Shown here: one piece after another, positions 7,364-62,974 of the stretch | Numbering within the stretch: position 1 is the first letter of the stretch | Layout: each line of letters begins with the position of its first letter | Virus record (IMG/VR): IMGVR_UViG_3300023278_002646 | Span: 1-63,875 of that record | DNA from: a virus | DNA: 63,875 nucleotides | Strand: one strand, 5' to 3' | Made by a program: the position numbers and the translations under genes | Notes under the pieces: generated by a model | The model's database searches: none | The model's input: only the letters and a program-made list of their open reading frames with translations | What the model was told of the DNA's origin: nothing

Positions 7364-10009
7364 CTAATAATCCGTATTTGTTTCTATAGATAGTTCACGG
7401 GTTTGGTTAGACTGTGAAGTCGAGCGCGTGTTTCGTGAGGTTGATCGACTCAAAGTAATGTTTTTTGAATACAAGATCCCAACATCATCCAAATCTATGC
7501 TGGGCATTTCGTTTGCAACGCTTCTCTTTACTTTATTTGTGTTGCCCGAGATACTTCTTTTGTTATTAGAAACACTTGGCGTTCCTACAATAAACATACT
7601 AGTCATAGGCTCCATGTTTAAAATGTCAGAAGTTCCCACGGCGTCAGATACTTTAACCAATCTACACATAAGCGGCTTATCCTCTGTGCTAGCTTTACTA
7701 AACTTTTCCTTATTTAGTAGTTTCCAGTTTTGGTTTGCCACACCTACCGTAACATCATATGAATCTAAATACTGAACTTGTGCCACAGAGTTATAGTTTA
7801 TAGCATTTGATAGAGCCGAGCCATTTTGTAAGACTGTATTATCCTCATTAAACTTCTGTAAGGCTGGGGATCCTGCAAGTGCCTCTTGGTTTGTTATTGT
7901 TGTAACAGGAACGAAGGAAGTTACACTTTGTTCTACAATATTTCCTATTAGAGAGTTTGAATATATATCAACAGACGGCGTTGCTGTAACGTTTGAGGTC
8001 GTTGAGCCAGATTGAGTGGTTCCTGAACCTTTCTCAAAGATAAAGTCAGATGTAGAAGAGAGATAATCCTCTGCATCAATAATGCTTTTAAACATCTTTT
8101 TTGAGCCGGCTATTTCTCTAAGGGGTCTCTTGTTTCTTCTGGCAGAGATATTTAGTCCTGCGAGAATATTGTCAACAGCGCTTGAAGCTTTCTGGCTTTT
8201 ATTAGCTTTAAACACCCTGTCCTTATTAGTTCGTGACTCTATCAGTGGGAGCGCGCTAACTGTTTGTACAGATATATCTCTGGTATTAATACTTAAAGGG
8301 TTAGGTAACAAGTTTATGCTATTAGCAGTTAAATAACCAAATGGATTCAGTACATCAGCTTGAGTATTCGTTATATTATATTTTGATACTTCACTGTTGG
8401 CGCGCGTTGTATAGTCAGCAAAGGAGATGCTTGGTAGTGCCGGCGCAACTTCTGTCACGTTATCGTCAAGATAGTTTAATCCAAAATCTTTAGTCCCCGT
8501 AAAGTAATATACTTCCCCGAAAATATATTCTACTCTCAATGTTGGATCGTGAGTTGACATGTATATTTTCGAGTCGACGCTAAAGGTTTCATCTTTTTTC
8601 TTCTTTGGATGCAGAATGCTCTCTAACTTACTAATGTAGTCATTCATAATAGATAAAAACATCTGCTTATCCGAGCCATAACTTGGATTAAATCTGTTAA
8701 TGAATGCTAATAAGTTTTTCTTCCACTGTCTTCTTGAGTAAGTACTGAACGGTTGGGCTCCAAGAATTACTTGTACAGAAGAAAGAAAATCATTGATAAT
8801 CTCCATATAGGATGATTGTAAATCGGGAATCTCTCTAATCGAAGAAATCTTTCTCATACTTGTGCGGAGTGGAGCCAATAAGCTTTCTATTAGTTCTTTT
8901 GTATTATCTTCAAGAATAATCTCTGCTTTGTATTCAGCCACACCAGAGTTTATGCCCTCTGTTGTCTGATCAACAAAAAATACTTGACCTAGATTGCCGT
9001 CATTTAGAATATTATCAACGATAGAGCATCCGTCTCTCAAACTAGCCACTCTCTTATATCTGCTGTCCTCTTTTAAGCCACACTTTTGGGAGCGCCCAGG
9101 AGTCAAAGAGTTTCCTGCTGCTTCATAGCCGGATGATTTTTGGTAGATGATTATATCCTTAATGTTTACGGCTGTTAGGAGGGTTTGATTATTTTCTATT
9201 AGTCCTCCAAATCTAGTGTTGTTTTTAGCGAAGTTTAATATATTGAATGTAAATGAGCCATTAACTTTACCATTGCTTCCCCGAGACAAGGTTATCGGAG
9301 AGAAATAGCTATTATTCATCTTTGTATATCGAAAGTTTAAAGAATCTATGGTTCGTATGATTCGTAAATCTTTAACTCTGACATTTGGAACCTGTGTTAT
9401 CTCAAGATTGGGGTGCGAGCCTTCAATGTGAGTGTTGCCGACCATAAAGTTATTGTTTTGTATATGAGCGGATCCAGGCCAAATAGTTCCCTGCGTTCCG
9501 TATATGGGGCTGGTTTCCGCTAATCTATACACTGTTGAGTTCAAAAGTGTTTGATTTCCAGATACTATCGTTTCTTTAACAACATTCCCTACCAAGATTG
9601 TCTGCCCAACTTCCAACGTTGAACAAACTAAAACATATAAATCACTAGCTTGCGGTATGACAAAGTTCTTTTGGTAAAAAAAGCTGTAGATATCTTTGCT
9701 TTTTTCTGTTCTGGCTTTGACTGTATAATCCTTATACGAGGGCGCAAAAGCATAGTTGTTTTGGGAGTTGTTTTTTATTGTCTGTTTTAGTAGATCCCGA
9801 TCTGATGCTAACAACTCAATCTCTGTTTTAGAGTTAGAAAAATATATAAAATTATTAAACTTTTTATTTTTCTTTCTTAATAGGGTTTTCTGCTCATTAG
9901 AGATCCCTAGAGTTACAGCGTAGTCGCCGTTCGAATCCGTGTTAAATCTAACATCCTGTATGTTAATGAAAGGTATGCTACTTTTGTATGGACCAATAGA
10001 TATAGTCAT
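7364..10009 (-). CDS. Large virion structural protein (unknown, 881 aa)
   Basis: I place the start at the ATG whose A is at 10009, giving MTISIGPYKSSIPF and 881 residues. It forms a TAATG overlap with the stop of the 303-residue gene; a GTG six bases upstream is less likely. The protein is Asn/Ser/Thr/Ile-rich. The N-terminal 300 residues look beta-rich. A more helical, charged stretch follows around residues 380-520 (including KKKKDETFS), then a Ser/Thr/Asn-rich C-terminus with many RS, RST and RNTRST patches. No catalytic motif was seen. It is probably a baseplate or tail-fibre subunit. Confidence 0.65.
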   Translation of the reverse strand: MTISIGPYKSSIPFINIQDVRFNTDSNGDYAVTLGISNEQKTLLRKKNKKFNNFIYFSNSKTEIELLASDRDLLKQTIKNNSQNNYAFAPSYKDYTVKARTEKSKDIYSFFYQKNFVIPQASDLYVLVCSTLEVGQTILVGNVVKETIVSGNQTLLNSTVYRLAETSPIYGTQGTIWPGSAHIQNNNFMVGNTHIEGSHPNLEITQVPNVRVKDLRIIRTIDSLNFRYTKMNNSYFSPITLSRGSNGKVNGSFTFNILNFAKNNTRFGGLIENNQTLLTAVNIKDIIIYQKSSGYEAAGNSLTPGRSQKCGLKEDSRYKRVASLRDGCSIVDNILNDGNLGQVFFVDQTTEGINSGVAEYKAEIILEDNTKELIESLLAPLRTSMRKISSIREIPDLQSSYMEIINDFLSSVQVILGAQPFSTYSRRQWKKNLLAFINRFNPSYGSDKQMFLSIMNDYISKLESILHPKKKKDETFSVDSKIYMSTHDPTLRVEYIFGEVYYFTGTKDFGLNYLDDNVTEVAPALPSISFADYTTRANSEVSKYNITNTQADVLNPFGYLTANSINLLPNPLSINTRDISVQTVSALPLIESRTNKDRVFKANKSQKASSAVDNILAGLNISARRNKRPLREIAGSKKMFKSIIDAEDYLSSTSDFIFEKGSGTTQSGSTTSNVTATPSVDIYSNSLIGNIVEQSVTSFVPVTTITNQEALAGSPALQKFNEDNTVLQNGSALSNAINYNSVAQVQYLDSYDVTVGVANQNWKLLNKEKFSKASTEDKPLMCRLVKVSDAVGTSDILNMEPMTSMFIVGTPSVSNNKRSISGNTNKVKRSVANEMPSIDLDDVGILYSKNITLSRSTSRNTRSTSQSNQTRELSIETNTDY

Positions 10010-55137: not shown

Positions 55138-55653
55138 TTAATATTCTCCGGTTTTTGGTATATCGCCGGATTGAATCACCTGAACCAAAGTAGGTTGGGG
55201 GTCCTCATCATCGAAAAGAGATGGATCCATACCGGCGTCAGTGACTAGTGTTGAAGAACTTTGTATTTTTCCGCCTCCAACACTCCAAAGCATCTCGATA
55301 TCAAACTCATCACATACATCCATTTCTGGTGTATTGTTGGTTTTTCTATCACCGCCATTAGCAAAGTAATCCGGTTTAATACGACGAAGCGCTTCACAGA
55401 CAGTACCATCGGAATCATCTACATATGTGGTTTTTGCTGTGGCTGTAAACCCTTCGATGATTTCGCAGCGCTCCTCAAAAGGCATAAAGATATATCCCTT
55501 CTTTCTCATTAGCCAATCATCAGAGTTAACGATCACAGTGACGTGTCCAAACTTTGATGCTTCCTTAATCATACGAAGATGACCAATATGAACCGGGTCA
55601 AAGCCTCCTGAGACACATACTGTTGTATAAGGTGTTGGCTTTTCTTTACTCAT
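55138..55653 (-). CDS. Cytidylyltransferase-like nucleotidyltransferase (RfaE/HldE C-domain type)
   Basis: 171 residues from the ATG at 55653, which overlaps the upstream stop by eight bases; a longer form to 55755 would run through that gene. VCVSGGFDPVHIGHLRMIKE holds the H-x-G-H active site (HIGH), VIVNSDDWLMRKKGYIFMPF is the family middle block, and CEALRRIKPDYFANGGDR closes it. This wording is nearest to the ADP-heptose synthase adenylyltransferase domain. Together with the GmhA-like SIS domain at 34776-35753 it could serve heptose activation, but other HIGH-type substrates are possible. Confidence 0.82.
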   Translation of the reverse strand: MSKEKPTPYTTVCVSGGFDPVHIGHLRMIKEASKFGHVTVIVNSDDWLMRKKGYIFMPFEERCEIIEGFTATAKTTYVDDSDGTVCEALRRIKPDYFANGGDRKTNNTPEMDVCDEFDIEMLWSVGGGKIQSSSTLVTDAGMDPSLFDDEDPQPTLVQVIQSGDIPKTGEY

Positions 55654-55888
55654 CTTCTTGAGGACCGGTTGTTGAAAGAAAGTTTCTTTCAATAGCACTA
55701 ATTGCTTCCTCAGAGTCGGATAATCTTGTAATCGCCGTAGCAATCTCATTAACAATGCTTGGATGCTCGGCTACACCGGCTGGATTGTTTAGATAAAGTT
55801 CTATTACTGCGATAGACTCTTGTCTATCTGCTTCAAAACGAGCAAGTGCTGCTCTTATTAGTTGTTCAGCCATCATGTTATTCTTCAT
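55646..55888 (-). CDS. Small helical phage protein (80 aa)
   Basis: I place the start at the ATG at 55888 (MKNNMMAEQLIRAALARFEA), seven bases after an AAGGAG Shine-Dalgarno; an upstream in-frame start lies within the SNase gene. The protein is helical, with repeated A-x-x-R patterns, and ends in an acidic tail (PQEDE). Similar small proteins starting MxAEQLIRAALARxE occur in T4-like marine phages. The function is unknown. Confidence 0.7.
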   Translation of the reverse strand: MKNNMMAEQLIRAALARFEADRQESIAVIELYLNNPAGVAEHPSIVNEIATAITRLSDSEEAISAIERNFLSTTGPQEDE

Positions 55889-56231: not shown

Positions 56232-56319
56232 TGGCAGAGAGGGAGGGATTCGAACCCTCGGTAGCTTTCGCTACACTCACTTAGCAGGCGAGCACCATCG
56301 GCCTCTCGGTCACCTCTCT
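56232..56319 (-). tRNA. tRNA-Ser(GCT)
   Basis: 88 nt with encoded CCA. The acceptor stem AGAGAGG/CCTCTCT, anticodon loop CTGCTAA and a long variable arm with a GTAGC-GAAA-GCTAC hairpin identify a class II serine tRNA reading AGC/AGU. It is the last tRNA of the array, ten bases before the SNase gene. Confidence 0.93.
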
Positions 56320-56329
56320 AATGTTAATA

Positions 56330-56404
56330 TGGAGCGGGTGATGAGATTTGAACTCACGACCCTCGCCTTGGCAAGGCGATGCTCTACCACTGAGCTACAC
56401 CCGC
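56330..56404 (-). tRNA. tRNA-Gly(GCC)
   Basis: 75 nt with encoded CCA. The acceptor stem GCGGGTG/CACCCGC, anticodon stem TCGCC/GGCGA with loop TTGCCAA, and T arm GTGAG/CTCAT are all consistent. It reads GGC/GGU codons. Confidence 0.95.
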
Positions 56405-56421
56405 TTAGTGTATATAGTAAA

Positions 56422-56498
<77 letters not shown>

Positions 56499-56502
56499 AA
56501 TA

Positions 56503-56579
56503 TGGTGGGCGGCGAGAGATTCGAACTCCCGACCTGATGCGTGTAAAACAACTGCTCTAACCAACTGAGCTAGCCGCCC
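56503..56579 (-). tRNA. tRNA-Val(TAC)
   Basis: 77 nt with encoded CCA. Acceptor GGGCGGC/GCCGCCC, anticodon loop TTTACAC (TAC), variable region AGGTC. The anticodon stem GTTGT/GCATC holds a U28-U42 mismatch, shared with the Ala and Thr tRNAs next to it. It reads GUA and GUG. Confidence 0.9.
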
Positions 56580-56584
56580 TAAAA

Positions 56585-56660
56585 TGGTGGAGATGATAGG
56601 AATCGAACCTACGACCTGATGCGTGCAAGGCAACTGCTCTCCCAACTGAGCTACATCCCC
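56585..56660 (-). tRNA. tRNA-Ala(TGC)
   Basis: 76 nt with encoded CCA. Acceptor GGGGATG/CATCTCC contains the G3-U70 wobble pair that specifies alanine. The anticodon stem GTTGC/GCATC (U28-U42 mismatch) encloses loop CTTGCAC. Its acceptor stem is identical to that of the tmRNA at 58047-58360. Confidence 0.93.
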
Positions 56661-56665
56661 AAAAG

Positions 56666-56731
<66 letters not shown>

Positions 56732-56741
<10 letters not shown>

Positions 56742-58046: not shown

Positions 58047-58360
58047 TGGTGGAGATGGTGGGAATCGAACCCACGTCCAAAGTATCTTCATTTTCAAGTC
58101 ATTCACAGGTTTAGTTTATTTTTCTAAATAAACAAAATATCAGTTCTGATTAGATCCGCTCAGATAAGTAAAAGCGTTTTTGTTTTGTTTGTTCTTCTTG
58201 GACACCCGGCGAAGAACAACCGGGGGTTAAGCAGCTAGTGCTAGACCGTAATCTGCTTCGTTTGCAGTTATATGTTTCTAACTAATATTTTATGTGATTG
58301 AGTTAGCTTTCACAACCTGCACTATCCAGTTTATTTACCCTGTCGAAACCGGTCATCCCC
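58047..58360 (-). ncRNA. ssrA: tmRNA (one-piece), tag ANEADYGLALAA
   Basis: 314 nt. The 5' end GGGGATGACCGGTTTCGACA is the conserved tmRNA start; the 3' end has a T arm (GTGGG-TTCGATT-CCCAC), acceptor strand CATCTCC and an encoded ACCA. The acceptor stem GGGGATG/CATCTCC carries the G3-U70 alanine identity pair. The tag reading frame at 58227-58265 reads A-N-E-A-D-Y-G-L-A-L-A-A-stop, ending in the ALAA degron recognised by ClpXP. A GC hairpin (CCCGG..CCGGG) follows the tag. It would rescue stalled ribosomes and tag nascent peptides during infection. It is not the two-piece type. Confidence 0.95.
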
Positions 58361-58739: not shown

Positions 58740-59588
58740 TTACTGCTCTAGAAGCTTATCGATAAGGCTTTCAAGATTGATTGACATACCTTCTTCCAAC
58801 TCAAACTCTGGAACATCTGTCTCAGGATCAACGAGGTCATCAGTCTCGGTTGGAGCAGCTGCCGGAGCGTCAGGAACAGCATCCGCGGCCTCCTCAGGCT
58901 CTTCAACATTTACTTGCAGCTCACTTTCATACTTATCGAAGTATAAAGCAAGGTTTTTAAGAAGATACTCTTCGAACATACTGATGTCTTGTGCATTATC
59001 AAGGTTGTCGAAAGCAGTTAAAATATTCTTCTCAACATTCTGGAAGTCGCTATATGCTCTGTTGCGACCTGTTTTATCTTCTCCATCCAGACCAAATGTA
59101 TCTCTTTCATCTGGTTCTTCTTCTGGCTCTTCTGCTTCGTCTGAAACATCAATAAAATCCGGATCATCCTCAGGACGATCAGAAACAGTAATATCGATTT
59201 CTTCTTCTACTGGCTCAAGTTCAGCGTCAGAACCAGCATCTTTACGAGACTCTTCGGGGGCAAGAGACTTCTCCACAGCACTTAGGATGTGGTTGCGGTA
59301 TGAGTCTCTCTGTTGCTTATCAGTGGTAAGAGACTTATATCCTGTCTCTACGACAGAAAGAACATTAGAGTTCTTAAGAAGGTCTTCTAGGGCATTGATA
59401 CCAGTGTTTTCGTGCTTCGCTACAGAAGCAACAGCAGACTGACCTTCAAGCAAGCTTCGAACAATAGAGCGAAGCTTCTTTTCTTCGTTCAGTCTTTTTG
59501 TGTCTTTCTTATTTATTATGTGACGAATAGCTTTACGCACGTTCTCACGGAGCATTAGCTCTTCTGCAAATTCTTTACGATCAATCAT
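58740..59588 (-). CDS. Acidic phage protein (282 aa)
   Basis: 282 residues. The N-terminal 90 residues are basic and helical (MIDRKEFAEELMLRENVRKA, SIVRSLLEG). Residues of about 115-165 are a low-complexity acidic stretch rich in Glu, Asp and Pro; helices follow at 180-215 (DFQNVEKNILTAFDNLDNAQ), then a second acidic Ala/Pro-rich region and an amphipathic C-terminal helix (SINLESLIDKLL). This layout resembles scaffold or internal head proteins, but no family is recognised. Confidence 0.6.
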   Translation of the reverse strand: MIDRKEFAEELMLRENVRKAIRHIINKKDTKRLNEEKKLRSIVRSLLEGQSAVASVAKHENTGINALEDLLKNSNVLSVVETGYKSLTTDKQQRDSYRNHILSAVEKSLAPEESRKDAGSDAELEPVEEEIDITVSDRPEDDPDFIDVSDEAEEPEEEPDERDTFGLDGEDKTGRNRAYSDFQNVEKNILTAFDNLDNAQDISMFEEYLLKNLALYFDKYESELQVNVEEPEEAADAVPDAPAAAPTETDDLVDPETDVPEFELEEGMSINLESLIDKLLEQ

Positions 59589-59591
59589 TGT

Positions 59592-61730
59592 TTAGCCCAC
59601 CGATATTCCTAATAAATAGTCCATCACTTCAGTAACCAACTCATCCTCGGCAATGAAGTTTTTTGGATGCCTCTTTTTCTTTTTCTCTGATCCAACAACA
59701 TCAGGAGCGCGCCCAGAGAATCCTGCTACGGCGCCGCCGCCCATAGCGGACATTTCTTCAAGTTTTCCTTGAAGTATATCATAGATTTCTTGATTATAAA
59801 ATCCCATAATACTTTGAAAGTCTTCTGGTGTCGCACCTTTGAGTGCTTTTCTTAAAGTTGTGCCCGACATTTCACCGAAGCCAGGAACATCAATCTCAAC
59901 ATGAGGAGCAACTGCGATGTAACCGTGCTTACCGAGCCCTACAAGCTCTTCTCCTGGCTTATAAGTCTTATAGTAAGCAGGAGTGCCTTTCTTCGTGAAA
60001 CCGTCTAGGTTCGCAAATCTCGGGCTCTCACGCATATCCTTTCCACCGACAGCGAAAACAACTGCTGTTGCGTCTGGATCAAAGTTTTGAGTTACTTCTT
60101 CGGCAACATAAGGTTTTCTGGTCATCACGATCTTATCGGCAGGGATCCCGTGAGCCACCATAATCTTTTTCTTTTCTTCAAAGCTTAGTGGAGACGTTGG
60201 ACCTGTCTTATTCGAAGTCACAACGAATGTGTTCTCGGCACCATATTGTTTGGCAAGTGCCTTATAAGTTGCGTAGTGATGACGACCCATTGGCTGGAAT
60301 CGACCGGGGTAAATAGCAATAACTCTTTTTTGGTCTTGCTCATTCAAAGCCCAGTTAACTGCCTCAGCCAAAGCAATCTTTACTTTACTTTCTTCGCGGA
60401 CCAAAGAAGTGATTGGAGCCCCACCAAGAAGGTTCTCGTAAAGTGCTTGATTCTTGTTTGCAACAGAAGGAAGATTTCGAGACCATTCCAAAAGAGTCTT
60501 TGATACAGAATAACCATCGGTTCCCCAATATACTGATAAACTCTCTGTCTGCTGGAACTTGGCGCCTTTATCTACTGCAAAGTTTGCCTTGCTGAACTCT
60601 AAACGATCAACAAACTTAACGCCATTACCAATGTGATCAACAGCAACATAACCTTCCGGGTTGCTTGCGACCAAATCGCCTGAACCATCATCAATAAAAT
60701 GCTTTGTGTTATATACAGCGTTGTTATATTTGGCGATGAATATGTTTTTTGCTTCAAATAGAAGTCGCGAGACTCTAAAAAGATTAACAAGATCTTCCTT
60801 TCTATCATCAATAGAAGAAAGCATTTCCTGTCCTTTTTGAGTTGCCTTTAATCTTCCTCTCTCAGACTTCAAAGAATTGATTCTTTTTTCTAGACGACCA
60901 GAATACCAACGCTTGAAACCATCAAGAGACTTCTCGGGATCCTCAATAAACTGACCACCCTTAATCTCAGAGTTAATGTAGATATTAAGAAGATCCATCG
61001 GCAGACCATCATAGTTAATCTTGATTTGATCTGCGGCTGAAACTAATTCCTTAACCTTCGCCTCTTCATCTTCAGTTAAAGTAACGGTGCCTGTATCATC
61101 TGTGAAATAAGCATCATCAACCCAAACGCCGGGGACTTTATTCAACCCACTTACGTCTGCGCCAAAAGAAGCCCCACCATCCAAACTATCATAAGTCGTA
61201 TGAAATACAATACCAAACTTTGATTCGGCAATCTCTTGACCAAACTTGGAGTTGACAGGAGCAGCATAAGTAATAGTATTTGGCTTGAAAGCATAATGAG
61301 GCTCACCATCAACATCAATAGTGCTAATCATCTCATCATCAAACATAAAGTCGCCTTGAAGAATCTTTTGGATTCCTAATCCAGGCAAATAGCGAAGCGC
61401 TTTAACTAACTTATCAACCAAACCCGGAGCATGCCCGTGATTTCTCTGGACATCTTCGGGGGTATAGTTTATCTTTGGGACTTTATTAAAGATAGATTTG
61501 GTACCAACAAAGAACTTACCGTTCTCGGGATTGATACCAGCAAAAATAGCAGGAGCCCCGTCCCATTTAACGGAGGTCTTTACTTTTGAATCAACATTGC
61601 CTTTTAACTCTTCCAACAACTCAAGCAAGAATGCCCGAGCCATATCATAACCTTTTGGACCTTGTGTTAAAACAAGTTCTTCAAGGTGAGTTAAGTGAGT
61701 GTTTGCTTTTCCTTCATCCAGAAGAAACAT
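59592..61730 (-). CDS. Fusion of RNA-ligase-like and HIGH-type nucleotidyltransferase domains
   Basis: 712 residues. Residues of about 40-390 look like the nucleotidyltransferase core of the RNA/DNA ligase superfamily: motif I VKWDGAP with Lys55 and K-x-D-G, FVGTKS near 75, a motif IIIa-like GDFMFDDEM near 127, motif IV-like PEGYVAVD near 358 (Glu359), and a motif V-like VKFVDRLEFSKANF. Residues of about 468-650 form a HIGH-type domain: IAIYPGRFQPMGRHHYATYK and PLSFEEKKKIMVAHGIP, with VFAVGGKDM later, as in NMN adenylyltransferases. It could seal or cap RNA ends, or attach nucleotides. Both domains keep key residues. Confidence 0.75.
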   Translation of the reverse strand: MFLLDEGKANTHLTHLEELVLTQGPKGYDMARAFLLELLEELKGNVDSKVKTSVKWDGAPAIFAGINPENGKFFVGTKSIFNKVPKINYTPEDVQRNHGHAPGLVDKLVKALRYLPGLGIQKILQGDFMFDDEMISTIDVDGEPHYAFKPNTITYAAPVNSKFGQEIAESKFGIVFHTTYDSLDGGASFGADVSGLNKVPGVWVDDAYFTDDTGTVTLTEDEEAKVKELVSAADQIKINYDGLPMDLLNIYINSEIKGGQFIEDPEKSLDGFKRWYSGRLEKRINSLKSERGRLKATQKGQEMLSSIDDRKEDLVNLFRVSRLLFEAKNIFIAKYNNAVYNTKHFIDDGSGDLVASNPEGYVAVDHIGNGVKFVDRLEFSKANFAVDKGAKFQQTESLSVYWGTDGYSVSKTLLEWSRNLPSVANKNQALYENLLGGAPITSLVREESKVKIALAEAVNWALNEQDQKRVIAIYPGRFQPMGRHHYATYKALAKQYGAENTFVVTSNKTGPTSPLSFEEKKKIMVAHGIPADKIVMTRKPYVAEEVTQNFDPDATAVVFAVGGKDMRESPRFANLDGFTKKGTPAYYKTYKPGEELVGLGKHGYIAVAPHVEIDVPGFGEMSGTTLRKALKGATPEDFQSIMGFYNQEIYDILQGKLEEMSAMGGGAVAGFSGRAPDVVGSEKKKKRHPKNFIAEDELVTEVMDYLLGISVG

Positions 61731-62218: not shown

Positions 62219-62974
62219 TTACTTACTCTCCTTTTTGATTCTTCGTAGGATTCTACGAGTGATTTGCTTTGCCTCGTGGACAGAGATCATTTTTGGTGCT
62301 GTTGTTTCCTCAACAGTCTCCTCATCTTCTGTCCGGCCACAGTTTGATTCGTCAAGATCTTCTTTCTTGGCGTCCTTAGCAGCATCCTTCATTGACTCTT
62401 CTTTATCGCCATCCTTATCTACATCAAGGAAGTCTGGCTTGGCGCCTTCACTAAGAAGTCCCCATTTCTTCATCAACTTTGTGTTGATTTCATTGTTTTT
62501 CCACTCTTTAAGTGACATCTTTGGTTCTCCTGAATCCGAGAAATCAATCTCGATATTAATTTTTCCTGTTTTAATTAGATCTTCAAAGTCTCTAAATATT
62601 AAATTTCCTTTTTCGTATGCCTCTCGCTCCATTTCTCTAAGGTGCGGATCTTTCTGGGCATACCCTTCGCCAGTAGCATTATCAGTTGTAAAATCTCCAC
62701 GACAGTTCTGATCGTGATGAACTAGTTCGTGCGATAAAGATCTCAATATATCTTTTGGATGCCTTCCATCTGTATAAAGAACAATCTGGTAGTTCTGTGG
62801 GTCATAGTAAGCAGTCTTGCCTAACATCCTGCCGGCATTATCCTGATCACTTTGAAAAACGATCGAGGCGCCTTTATCAAAGCCAAGTTGTTTTTGAGAA
62901 TAAGGAAAAAAGTTATCAACCATCTGTTCAAGATGGCGAGTGTTTCCAGCAGTATTGTTTACGCACTTATGCAT
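62219..62974 (-). CDS. Zincin-like metallopeptidase with C-terminal Ca-binding-like loop
   Basis: 251 residues. RSLSHELVHHDQNCRGDF has the H-E-x-x-H zinc site (His82, Glu83, His86), and LREMEREAYEKGN downstream could give the third ligand. The C-terminal part has GAKPDFLDVDKDGDKEES with D184-x-D186-x-D188-G, an EF-hand/dockerin-like calcium loop, then a Lys/Asp/Ala helix and a basic amphipathic end (HEAKQITRRILRRIKKES). The calcium-loop segment recurs in phage virion proteins. It may process a virion protein or act on the host; no signal peptide is present. No clear Shine-Dalgarno. Confidence 0.72.
   Translation of the reverse strand: MHKCVNNTAGNTRHLEQMVDNFFPYSQKQLGFDKGASIVFQSDQDNAGRMLGKTAYYDPQNYQIVLYTDGRHPKDILRSLSHELVHHDQNCRGDFTTDNATGEGYAQKDPHLREMEREAYEKGNLIFRDFEDLIKTGKINIEIDFSDSGEPKMSLKEWKNNEINTKLMKKWGLLSEGAKPDFLDVDKDGDKEESMKDAAKDAKKEDLDESNCGRTEDEETVEETTAPKMISVHEAKQITRRILRRIKKESK

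What the first reader, a model, noticed from the sequence alone, without database searches (positions are those of the whole stretch)
59592..61730. RNA-ligase-like domain fused to an NMN-adenylyltransferase-like domain
K55-x-D-G with downstream EGYV and VKFV...SKANF motifs looks like a ligase core, and GRFQPMGRHH plus PLSFEEKKKI is a HIGH-type nucleotidyltransferase. One protein might adenylylate or NAD-cap and then seal RNA, a possible answer to host RNA-cleaving defences. Tandem placement near tRNAs and a tmRNA fits an RNA-repair role.
Basis: partly seen in the sequence, partly recalled or inferred. Interest (0 to 1): 0.6.

Follow-up and report, generated by a model that had tools for sequence, protein, structure and literature searches.

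The report
Phage ligase-like enzyme with swappable partner
A protein family of unknown function, present in nearly all T4-like phages of marine cyanobacteria, looks like a divergent RNA/DNA-ligase-type enzyme; here it is fused to a second nucleotide-transferring enzyme that has been exchanged for other types in close relatives, beside the phage's own tmRNA and tRNA genes, which suggests a phage RNA-repair function that still has to be tested at the bench.

Summary
The ORF (59592-61730, minus strand, 712 aa) and every motif named are there. The N-terminal domain is Pfam DUF6267 (E 1e-95), the C-terminal one a HIGH-superfamily nucleotidyltransferase (NTase). DUF6267 has no assigned function, but across 108 non-redundant relatives K55/D57/G58, D127, E359/G360, K372 and R376 are invariant, in ligase motif order. 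Its predicted structure (pLDDT 91.5) finds no confident PDB match; outside its own family the best viral match is an RNA ligase (E 5e-4). DUF6267 is near-universal in T4-like cyanophages. Of 11 phage records checked, 10 have no other recognisable ligase; T4 has three ligases and no DUF6267. The two domains are neighbouring genes in many phages and fused in others. In the window's clade the NTase was exchanged at least twice while the flanks stayed conserved, and a phage tmRNA gene lies just downstream (40 of 44 loci; 0 of 116 standalone loci). NTase partners are mass-spectrometry-detected virion proteins in three cyanophages. Those, and about half of DUF6267 proteins, start with a T4-type capsid-targeting sequence; the window protein keeps only an LxE remnant. 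The ligase-type fold is well supported. RNA sealing is the most likely reaction but unproven. The NTase substrate is unknown.

The parts
59592..61730 (-). 712-aa fusion protein: DUF6267 (ligase-like) + linker + HIGH-type nucleotidyltransferase + conserved C-terminal tail
60567..61703 (-). DUF6267 domain, residues 10-388; predicted ligase/nucleotidyltransferase core
   Evidence: Pfam E 1.1e-95; model pLDDT 91.5, pTM 0.88; Foldseek
61713..61724 (-). LLDE (residues 3-6): possible remnant of the LxE prohead-protease site of a capsid-targeting N-terminus
   Evidence: comparison of N-termini; inference for this protein
61551..61568 (-). motif I, K55-W-D-G-A-P (putative AMP-accepting lysine)
   Evidence: K55, D57, G58, P60 invariant in 108 relatives
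61494..61514 (-). motif Ia-like FFVGTKS, residues 73-79 (K78 invariant)
   Evidence: motif assignment is inference
61341..61358 (-). motif III-like QGDFMF, residues 125-130 (D127 invariant)
61266..61289 (-). motif IIIa-like FKPNTITY, residues 148-155
   Evidence: motif assignment is inference
60708..61103 (-). all-helical insertion (about residues 210-341); shorter in compact cyanophage versions
   Evidence: model secondary structure; compact proteins of about 295-307 aa
60645..60659 (-). motif IV PEGYV, residues 358-362
   Evidence: E359, G360, V362 invariant
60603..60617 (-). motif V-like KFVDR, residues 372-376
   Evidence: K372 and R376 invariant
59781..60332 (-). HIGH-superfamily nucleotidyltransferase domain (about residues 467-650), exchanged for other types in close relatives
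   Evidence: fold match, PHROG 395/3041, segment identities, tree
60276..60305 (-). HIGH motif GRFQPMGRHH, residues 476-485; last His invariant, first His of HxGH replaced by Gly
   Evidence: alignment A4, motif census
59850..59870 (-). second NTase motif MSGTTLR, residues 621-627 (S622, R627)
59595..59780 (-). Gly-rich tail and C-terminal helix (EEMSAMGGGAVAGFSGRAPDV...VMDYLLGISVG), conserved even where the NTase is exchanged
58740..59588 (-). 282-aa acidic ORF of unknown function starting 4 bp after the fusion; a family found at this place in 27 representative loci
58047..58360 (-). tmRNA, tag ANEADYGLALAA; syntenic with the fusion in its clade
   Evidence: (RF00023, E 6.5e-53)
56232..56741 (-). 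six tRNA genes (Ser, Gly, Pro, Val, Ala, Thr)

Best explanation
The protein is a two-enzyme fusion. DUF6267 is a divergent member of the covalent nucleotidyltransferase (polynucleotide ligase) superfamily: K55 probably takes AMP from ATP (or NAD+) and the domain joins nucleic-acid ends, most likely RNA, for example tRNA or tmRNA cut by host ribotoxins. The fused HIGH NTase makes or transfers a nucleotide; NMN-type substrates are the first guess. Its specificity has changed by domain exchange while the ligase part stayed fixed. In cyanophages the NTase partner travels in the capsid, and in parts of the family DUF6267 probably does too, so the pair could act early in infection. Shown by sequence or published data: domain identities, invariant motif set, fusion and adjacency, NTase exchange, tmRNA synteny, NTases in virions. 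Inferred: ligase-type chemistry (about 0.85), RNA as substrate (about 0.55), NMN-type NTase substrate (about 0.3), packaging of the window protein itself (about 0.3).
For: Invariant motif residues over wide divergence. High-confidence model whose best viral matches outside the family are RNA ligases, E 4.9e-4 prob 0.96 and E 6e-3 prob 0.87; 9 of the top 50 PDB matches are RNA/tRNA ligases, an NAD-ligase adenylation domain or a capping enzyme, though none is significant. Profile bridge through a second phage ligase-like family: DUF6267 to it E 0.0018, it to T4 Rnl2 E 0.006, controls 0.3-0.6. Ten of eleven named DUF6267 phage records have no other recognised ligase; T4, with three, has no DUF6267. 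Neighbouring NTase genes or fusion and an independent fusion of ligase-like and HIGH domains in reverse order. tmRNA just downstream in 40 of 44 marine fusions. RNA-repair-type neighbours in parts of the family: HAD_SAK_1 phosphatase, P-loop kinase, Pol-beta NTase. Virion NTases with capsid-targeting N-termini.
Against: No significant match to a solved ligase structure and no direct hhalign match to T4 Rnl2. Pfam RNA_lig_T4_1 appears only at noise level (3 of 96 members, best E 0.017). Motif III has D instead of the usual E. RNA-repair neighbours are found in only 16-25% of loci with enough flank. tmRNA linkage is confined to one clade, so few independent events. Cyanophage DUF6267 genes lie beside replication genes, which also suits a DNA role. 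No biochemistry.
Confidence: 0.5

Rival explanations
1. DUF6267 is the missing DNA ligase of marine T4-like phages: it seals nicks or Okazaki fragments in place of T4 gp30, and the NTase supplies or recycles its nucleotide cofactor.
For: Near-universal in T4-like cyanophages, which mostly lack PF01068 and PF01653 ligases; located between the primase-helicase/MazG genes and nrd genes.
Against: No OB-fold follows motif V, only short helices, whereas known DNA ligases have an OB domain (own knowledge). The closest viral fold matches are RNA ligases. Stenotrophomonas phage DLP_6 has both a PF01068 ligase and DUF6267. Linkage with tmRNA and RNA-repair-type genes.
Confidence: 0.2
2. A nucleotide/NAD+ metabolism or counter-defence module without end joining: the NTase rebuilds NAD+ or a related dinucleotide drained by host defences, and DUF6267 transfers nucleotides to a small molecule or protein.
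For: NTase fold matches NaMN adenylyltransferases best; authors of virion proteomes call the partner NMNAT-like; phage NAD+ synthesis modules are known.
Against: Three or more NTase types are exchanged on the same DUF6267, so one fixed metabolite is not obvious. The HIGH motif of the window protein lacks the first His. It does not explain the full ligase motif set or the tmRNA linkage.
Confidence: 0.18
3. DUF6267 is a 5'-end adenylyl- or guanylyltransferase (RNA capping or protein AMPylation) rather than an end-joining enzyme.
For: A capping enzyme is among the weak PDB matches (1p16); the superfamily includes capping enzymes (own knowledge).
Against: RNA ligases outnumber capping enzymes among the matches; no OB domain as in known capping enzymes (own knowledge).
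Confidence: 0.08
4. DUF6267 is a vestigial enzyme kept as an internal head protein without catalysis.
For: Capsid-targeting N-termini on about half of the family; virion neighbours and partners.
Against: Catalytic-type residues are strictly invariant over wide divergence, which vestigial domains would not keep; members without the targeting sequence are equally conserved.
Confidence: 0.04

Closest known systems
Pfam DUF6267 (PF19782) / PHROG 455 / cyanophage cluster T4-GC 71
   Same: The window domain is a full-length member (E 1e-95); PHROG 455 spans the ligase-like and NTase parts
   Different: The family has no assigned function; most isolates carry it as a standalone or compact gene
T4 RNA ligase 2 / RNA ligase 1 (PF09414, PF09511)
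   Same: Motif order and look: K-x-(D/H)-G, EGYV, K near FS; RNA ligases are the best viral fold matches outside the family
   Different: Not detected by either Pfam model above noise or by direct hhalign; motif III has D; large helical insertion before motif IV; no Rnl2-type C-terminal domain
NMN/NaMN adenylyltransferases and other HIGH-superfamily NTases (PF01467)
   Same: Fold match prob 1.00; GRFQP and S-x-T-x-x-R type motifs
   Different: Sequence match below Pfam's cut-off; first His of HxGH is Gly; fused to DUF6267; exchanged for other types
Predicted phage RNA-repair systems (ligase + kinase + HAD Swiss-army-knife phosphatase + Pol-beta NTase; PMC7824862)
   Same: Part of the family has the same kinds of neighbours
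   Different: The ligase here is a new family; HIGH NTase and tmRNA are added; the window itself shows no kinase or phosphatase within its 2 kb upstream flank
T4 internal head proteins with capsid targeting sequence (IPI-IPIII)
   Same: N-terminus MxxFxxF(L/I)xE with the L/I-x-E prohead protease site (PMC9026906)
   Different: Carried here by enzymes; absent or reduced to LxE in the window's clade; no proteomics for this phage

Membership tests
Pfam DUF6267 | Full-length profile match over the curated cut-off | tested here: met
   321.6 bits vs 27; residues 10-388 on profile 1-376 of 376
Covalent nucleotidyltransferase (polynucleotide ligase) superfamily | Motifs I, III, IV, V in order with invariant Lys, acidic residues and motif V Lys | tested here: met
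   K55/D57/G58, D127, E359/G360, K372 invariant; motif III carries D, not E
Covalent nucleotidyltransferase (polynucleotide ligase) superfamily | Fold of the adenylation domain | tested here: inconclusive
   Viral RNA ligase E 4.9e-4; PDB matches all above E 0.1 though enriched for the superfamily
Covalent nucleotidyltransferase (polynucleotide ligase) superfamily | Self-adenylylation at the motif I lysine | not testable with these tools
   needs biochemistry
T4 RNA ligase families (PF09414, PF09511) | Profile match over cut-off | tested here: not met
   PF09414: none in DUF6267 phages; PF09511: 3 of 96 members, best E 0.017; none in genome search
ATP- or NAD-dependent DNA ligases (PF01068, PF01653) | Profile match and OB domain | tested here: not met
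   no match to DUF6267; no strands after motif V in the model
HIGH-superfamily NTase (PF01467 and relatives) | Rossmann-like NTase fold with HxGH and S/T-x-x-R motifs | tested here: met
   fold prob 1.00; last His and S/R invariant in 29 tails; first His is Gly in the window clade
NMN adenylyltransferase | Activity on NMN or NaMN; canonical GRFQPxHxGH | tested here: inconclusive
   GRFQP present, HxGH altered to GRHH; activity not testable
T4-type capsid-targeted internal protein | N-terminal targeting sequence with L/I-x-E site | tested here: inconclusive
   Family: 52 of 103 vs 2.6% of other ORFs. Window: only MFLLDE-G remains
T4-type capsid-targeted internal protein | Carrier phages have the T4-type prohead protease (Peptidase S77) | tested here: met
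   18 of 21 DUF6267 records (the three misses are contigs of 90-100 kb that may be partial), plus T4
T4-type capsid-targeted internal protein | Presence in the virion | not testable with these tools
   Partner NTases found in three virions; DUF6267 of S-SZBM1 and S-CREM2 is not in the published lists and that of S-SCSM1 is not annotated as a virion protein

The most novel reading that the evidence does not exclude
One polypeptide with a self-contained NAD+ cycle for nucleic-acid sealing: the DUF6267 domain is an NAD+-dependent ligase that releases NMN, and the fused HIGH NTase turns NMN plus ATP back into NAD+. It keeps RNA or DNA repair running while host defences drain NAD+, and in some relatives the module is injected with the genome.
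Probability: 0.08. Interest if true: 0.88.

Novelty: new variant of a known kind. Interest (0 to 1): 0.62.

Why it matters
DUF6267 occurs in nearly all T4-like cyanophages and has had no assigned function. A ligase-superfamily reading gives a testable function to a near-core gene and could explain how these phages do without T4's DNA and RNA ligases. The exchanged NTase domain, the fixed tmRNA neighbour and the virion-borne NTase partners suggest a fast-evolving repair or counter-defence module, part of which enters the cell with the DNA.

Tried and rejected
Direct HMM search of the PDB with the protein, the DUF6267 profile and the NTase: no relative. hhalign of DUF6267 against T4 Rnl2: nothing. 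NCBIfam: nothing. The idea that S-SCSM1 ORF90, next to the virion NMNAT, is DUF6267 was wrong; its DUF6267 is an unlinked compact gene at 221406-222290. The idea that every DUF6267 is packaged was rejected, since the DUF6267 proteins of S-SZBM1, S-CREM2 and S-SCSM1 lack the targeting sequence and are not reported as virion proteins. An NAD-ligase-like NMN-binding domain at the N-terminus (invariant H12, H15, E17): no resemblance to LigA seen by eye, left open. Some references were out of frame and redone. RNA-repair neighbours (kinase, HAD, Pol-beta) were not found near the fusion in the window's closest clade.

Full report
Observation. Residues 10-388 are Pfam DUF6267 (E 1.1e-95). The C-terminal part matches cytidyltransferase PHROGs weakly by sequence (E 2e-4) and NaMN/phosphopantetheine adenylyltransferases by predicted fold (prob 1.00). 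The window is a 63.9-kb virus record.

Is the first domain a ligase? I collected over 300 DUF6267 loci. In 108 representatives below 80% identity, K55, D57, G58, K78, Q125, D127, N151, Y155, H177, N253, K328, E359, G360, V362, K372 and R376 are invariant or nearly so. This is the order I, Ia, III, IIIa, IV, V of the covalent nucleotidyltransferases. AlphaFold gives a confident model (pLDDT 91.5, pTM 0.88) with those motifs on or beside beta strands. Foldseek against the PDB gives no significant hit, but 9 of the top 50 are RNA ligases, tRNA ligases, an NAD-ligase adenylation domain or a capping enzyme. Against viral models the first named hits outside the family are RNA ligases (E 4.9e-4, prob 0.96; E 6e-3, prob 0.87). 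Direct comparison with T4 Rnl2 by hhalign fails. A second ligase-like phage family bridges the gap: DUF6267 to it E 0.0018, it to Rnl2 E 0.006, controls 0.3-0.6 (single comparisons, one family with only three sequences). I put the superfamily assignment at about 0.85. It is not a member of Rnl1, Rnl2 or the DNA ligase families as defined.

Architecture. In many phages DUF6267 is a standalone gene with a cytidylyltransferase gene directly behind it or one gene further. In the collected set 205 complete members have almost no tail and about 90 carry a tail of 150-430 aa (the sample leans towards the window's relatives). Tails show at least three HIGH subtypes: GRFQPMG-x-HH, GAFKPPHxGH and GRMNPPTxGH. 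Within the window's clade the NTase was exchanged: against L012 identities are 81% (DUF6267), 71% (NTase), 85% (tail); against L077 83%, 29% and 60%. L077 also keeps the clade's tmRNA tag type, and the DUF6267 tree needs three label changes for GRFQPMG, two forced by well-supported branches. The reverse order, NTase then ligase-like, occurs in Microcystis phage Mel-JY01 and in a megaphage.

Distribution. DUF6267 is in 467 phage records, 367 Synechococcus and 61 'Cyanophage'. A T4 gp41-type helicase finds 376 and 61 records with the same labels, so DUF6267 is near-universal in T4-like cyanophages; these are counts by name, not matched record by record. It is absent from T4. Of the eleven named DUF6267 phage records, ten have no PF01068, PF01653, PF09414 or PF09511; DLP_6 has a PF01068 ligase. 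T4 has PF01068, PF09414 and PF09511.

Neighbours. A tmRNA lies 1.2-2.8 kb behind the fusion in 34 of 36 FKPP-type and 6 of 8 GRFQPMG-type loci, and in 0 of 116 standalone and 0 of 14 GRMNPP loci. Tag sequences differ between clades. This is linkage within one clade, so it counts as few independent events. Elsewhere in the family neighbours include a HAD phosphatase matching HAD_SAK_1 (RNA-repair type), P-loop kinases and a Pol-beta NTase, each in 16-25% of loci with enough flank. Such sets are described as phage RNA repair (PMC7824862).

Packaging. The partner NTase was found by mass spectrometry in particles of S-SZBM1 (gene 140, directly behind DUF6267 gene 141; PMC9146016), S-CREM2 (ORF154; PMC10665884) and S-SCSM1 (ORF91; PMC9602691). 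Their N-termini, MRFRQFIIE-A, MKNFSSFLTE-A and MKSFLQFLKE-A, match the T4 pattern, in which about ten N-terminal residues target a protein into the head and the prohead protease cuts after L/I-x-E (PMC9026906). The same N-terminus is on 52 of 103 non-redundant DUF6267 proteins but on 2.6% of other ORFs in these loci. Most carriers have the T4-type protease. Against packaging: in these three phages DUF6267 lacks that N-terminus and was not reported in the virion. In the window's clade only an LxE remnant is left. Packaging of the window protein is therefore open. The proteome authors themselves note that such proteins could be carry-over from the lysate.

Function. My best reading is an RNA end-joining enzyme coupled to a nucleotide-making enzyme. 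A DNA ligase replacing gp30 is the strongest rival, because of the replication-block location and the missing ligase. NAD+ metabolism without end joining is next. The tools here cannot decide between substrates. Novelty: a widespread, unassigned family in a known superfamily with an unusual, exchangeable partner. I found no held paper that names DUF6267 or describes such a fusion; most subscription papers are not in that library, so prior recognition elsewhere is possible.

Noticed in passing
window 58047-58360 (-); also L006, L007, L011, L016, L044, L065, L077: A phage-encoded tmRNA gene, conserved across a whole clade of marine phages with clade-specific tag peptides (AN[DE]ADYGLALAA versus ANNNxHFExxxLAA).
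   Followed up: partly
L367 2426-4345 (Mel-JY01), L368 3596-6343 (LR756508): A second, Pfam-less ligase-like family (EKLDG ... EGIVFNYNGKVYKLTG) fused behind a HIGH NTase, i.e. the reverse domain order.
   Followed up: partly
L369 from about 2432 (LR756500 megaphage): A standalone member of that second family begins MKFLKSYEEFLNE-N, again like a capsid-targeting sequence.
   Followed up: no
L051 2287-2910 and 22 other loci: HAD phosphatase of the Swiss-army-knife RNA-repair type (HAD_SAK_1) near DUF6267, some copies with a capsid-targeting-like N-terminus.
   Followed up: partly
L089 1488-3776 and 16 other loci: Pol-beta nucleotidyltransferase fused to a HIGH NTase, a few base pairs behind DUF6267 in this locus.
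   Followed up: no
window 55138-55755 (-): A second HIGH-type nucleotidyltransferase (CVSGGFDPVHIGHLRMIKEA), separate from the fusion; relatives of it occur in other loci (cluster 28).
   Followed up: no
window 62219-62974 (-): Putative metalloprotease (HELVHH) upstream of the fusion; its KPDFLDVDKDGDKEESMK segment resembles KPDFLDLDKDGNKKEPMK of the S-SCSM1 virion protein ORF92.
   Followed up: no
L002 (S-PM2, AJ630128) 7947-9726: DUF6267-NTase is split over two ORFs in this record, while the structure library holds a 591-aa fused version from S-PM2 (A0A0M6VVW4), so the old record probably has a frame error.
   Followed up: partly
window about 34-52 kb (-): Long block of sugar-nucleotide, aminotransferase and glycosyltransferase genes, suggesting surface-sugar or glycan modification by this phage.
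   Followed up: no
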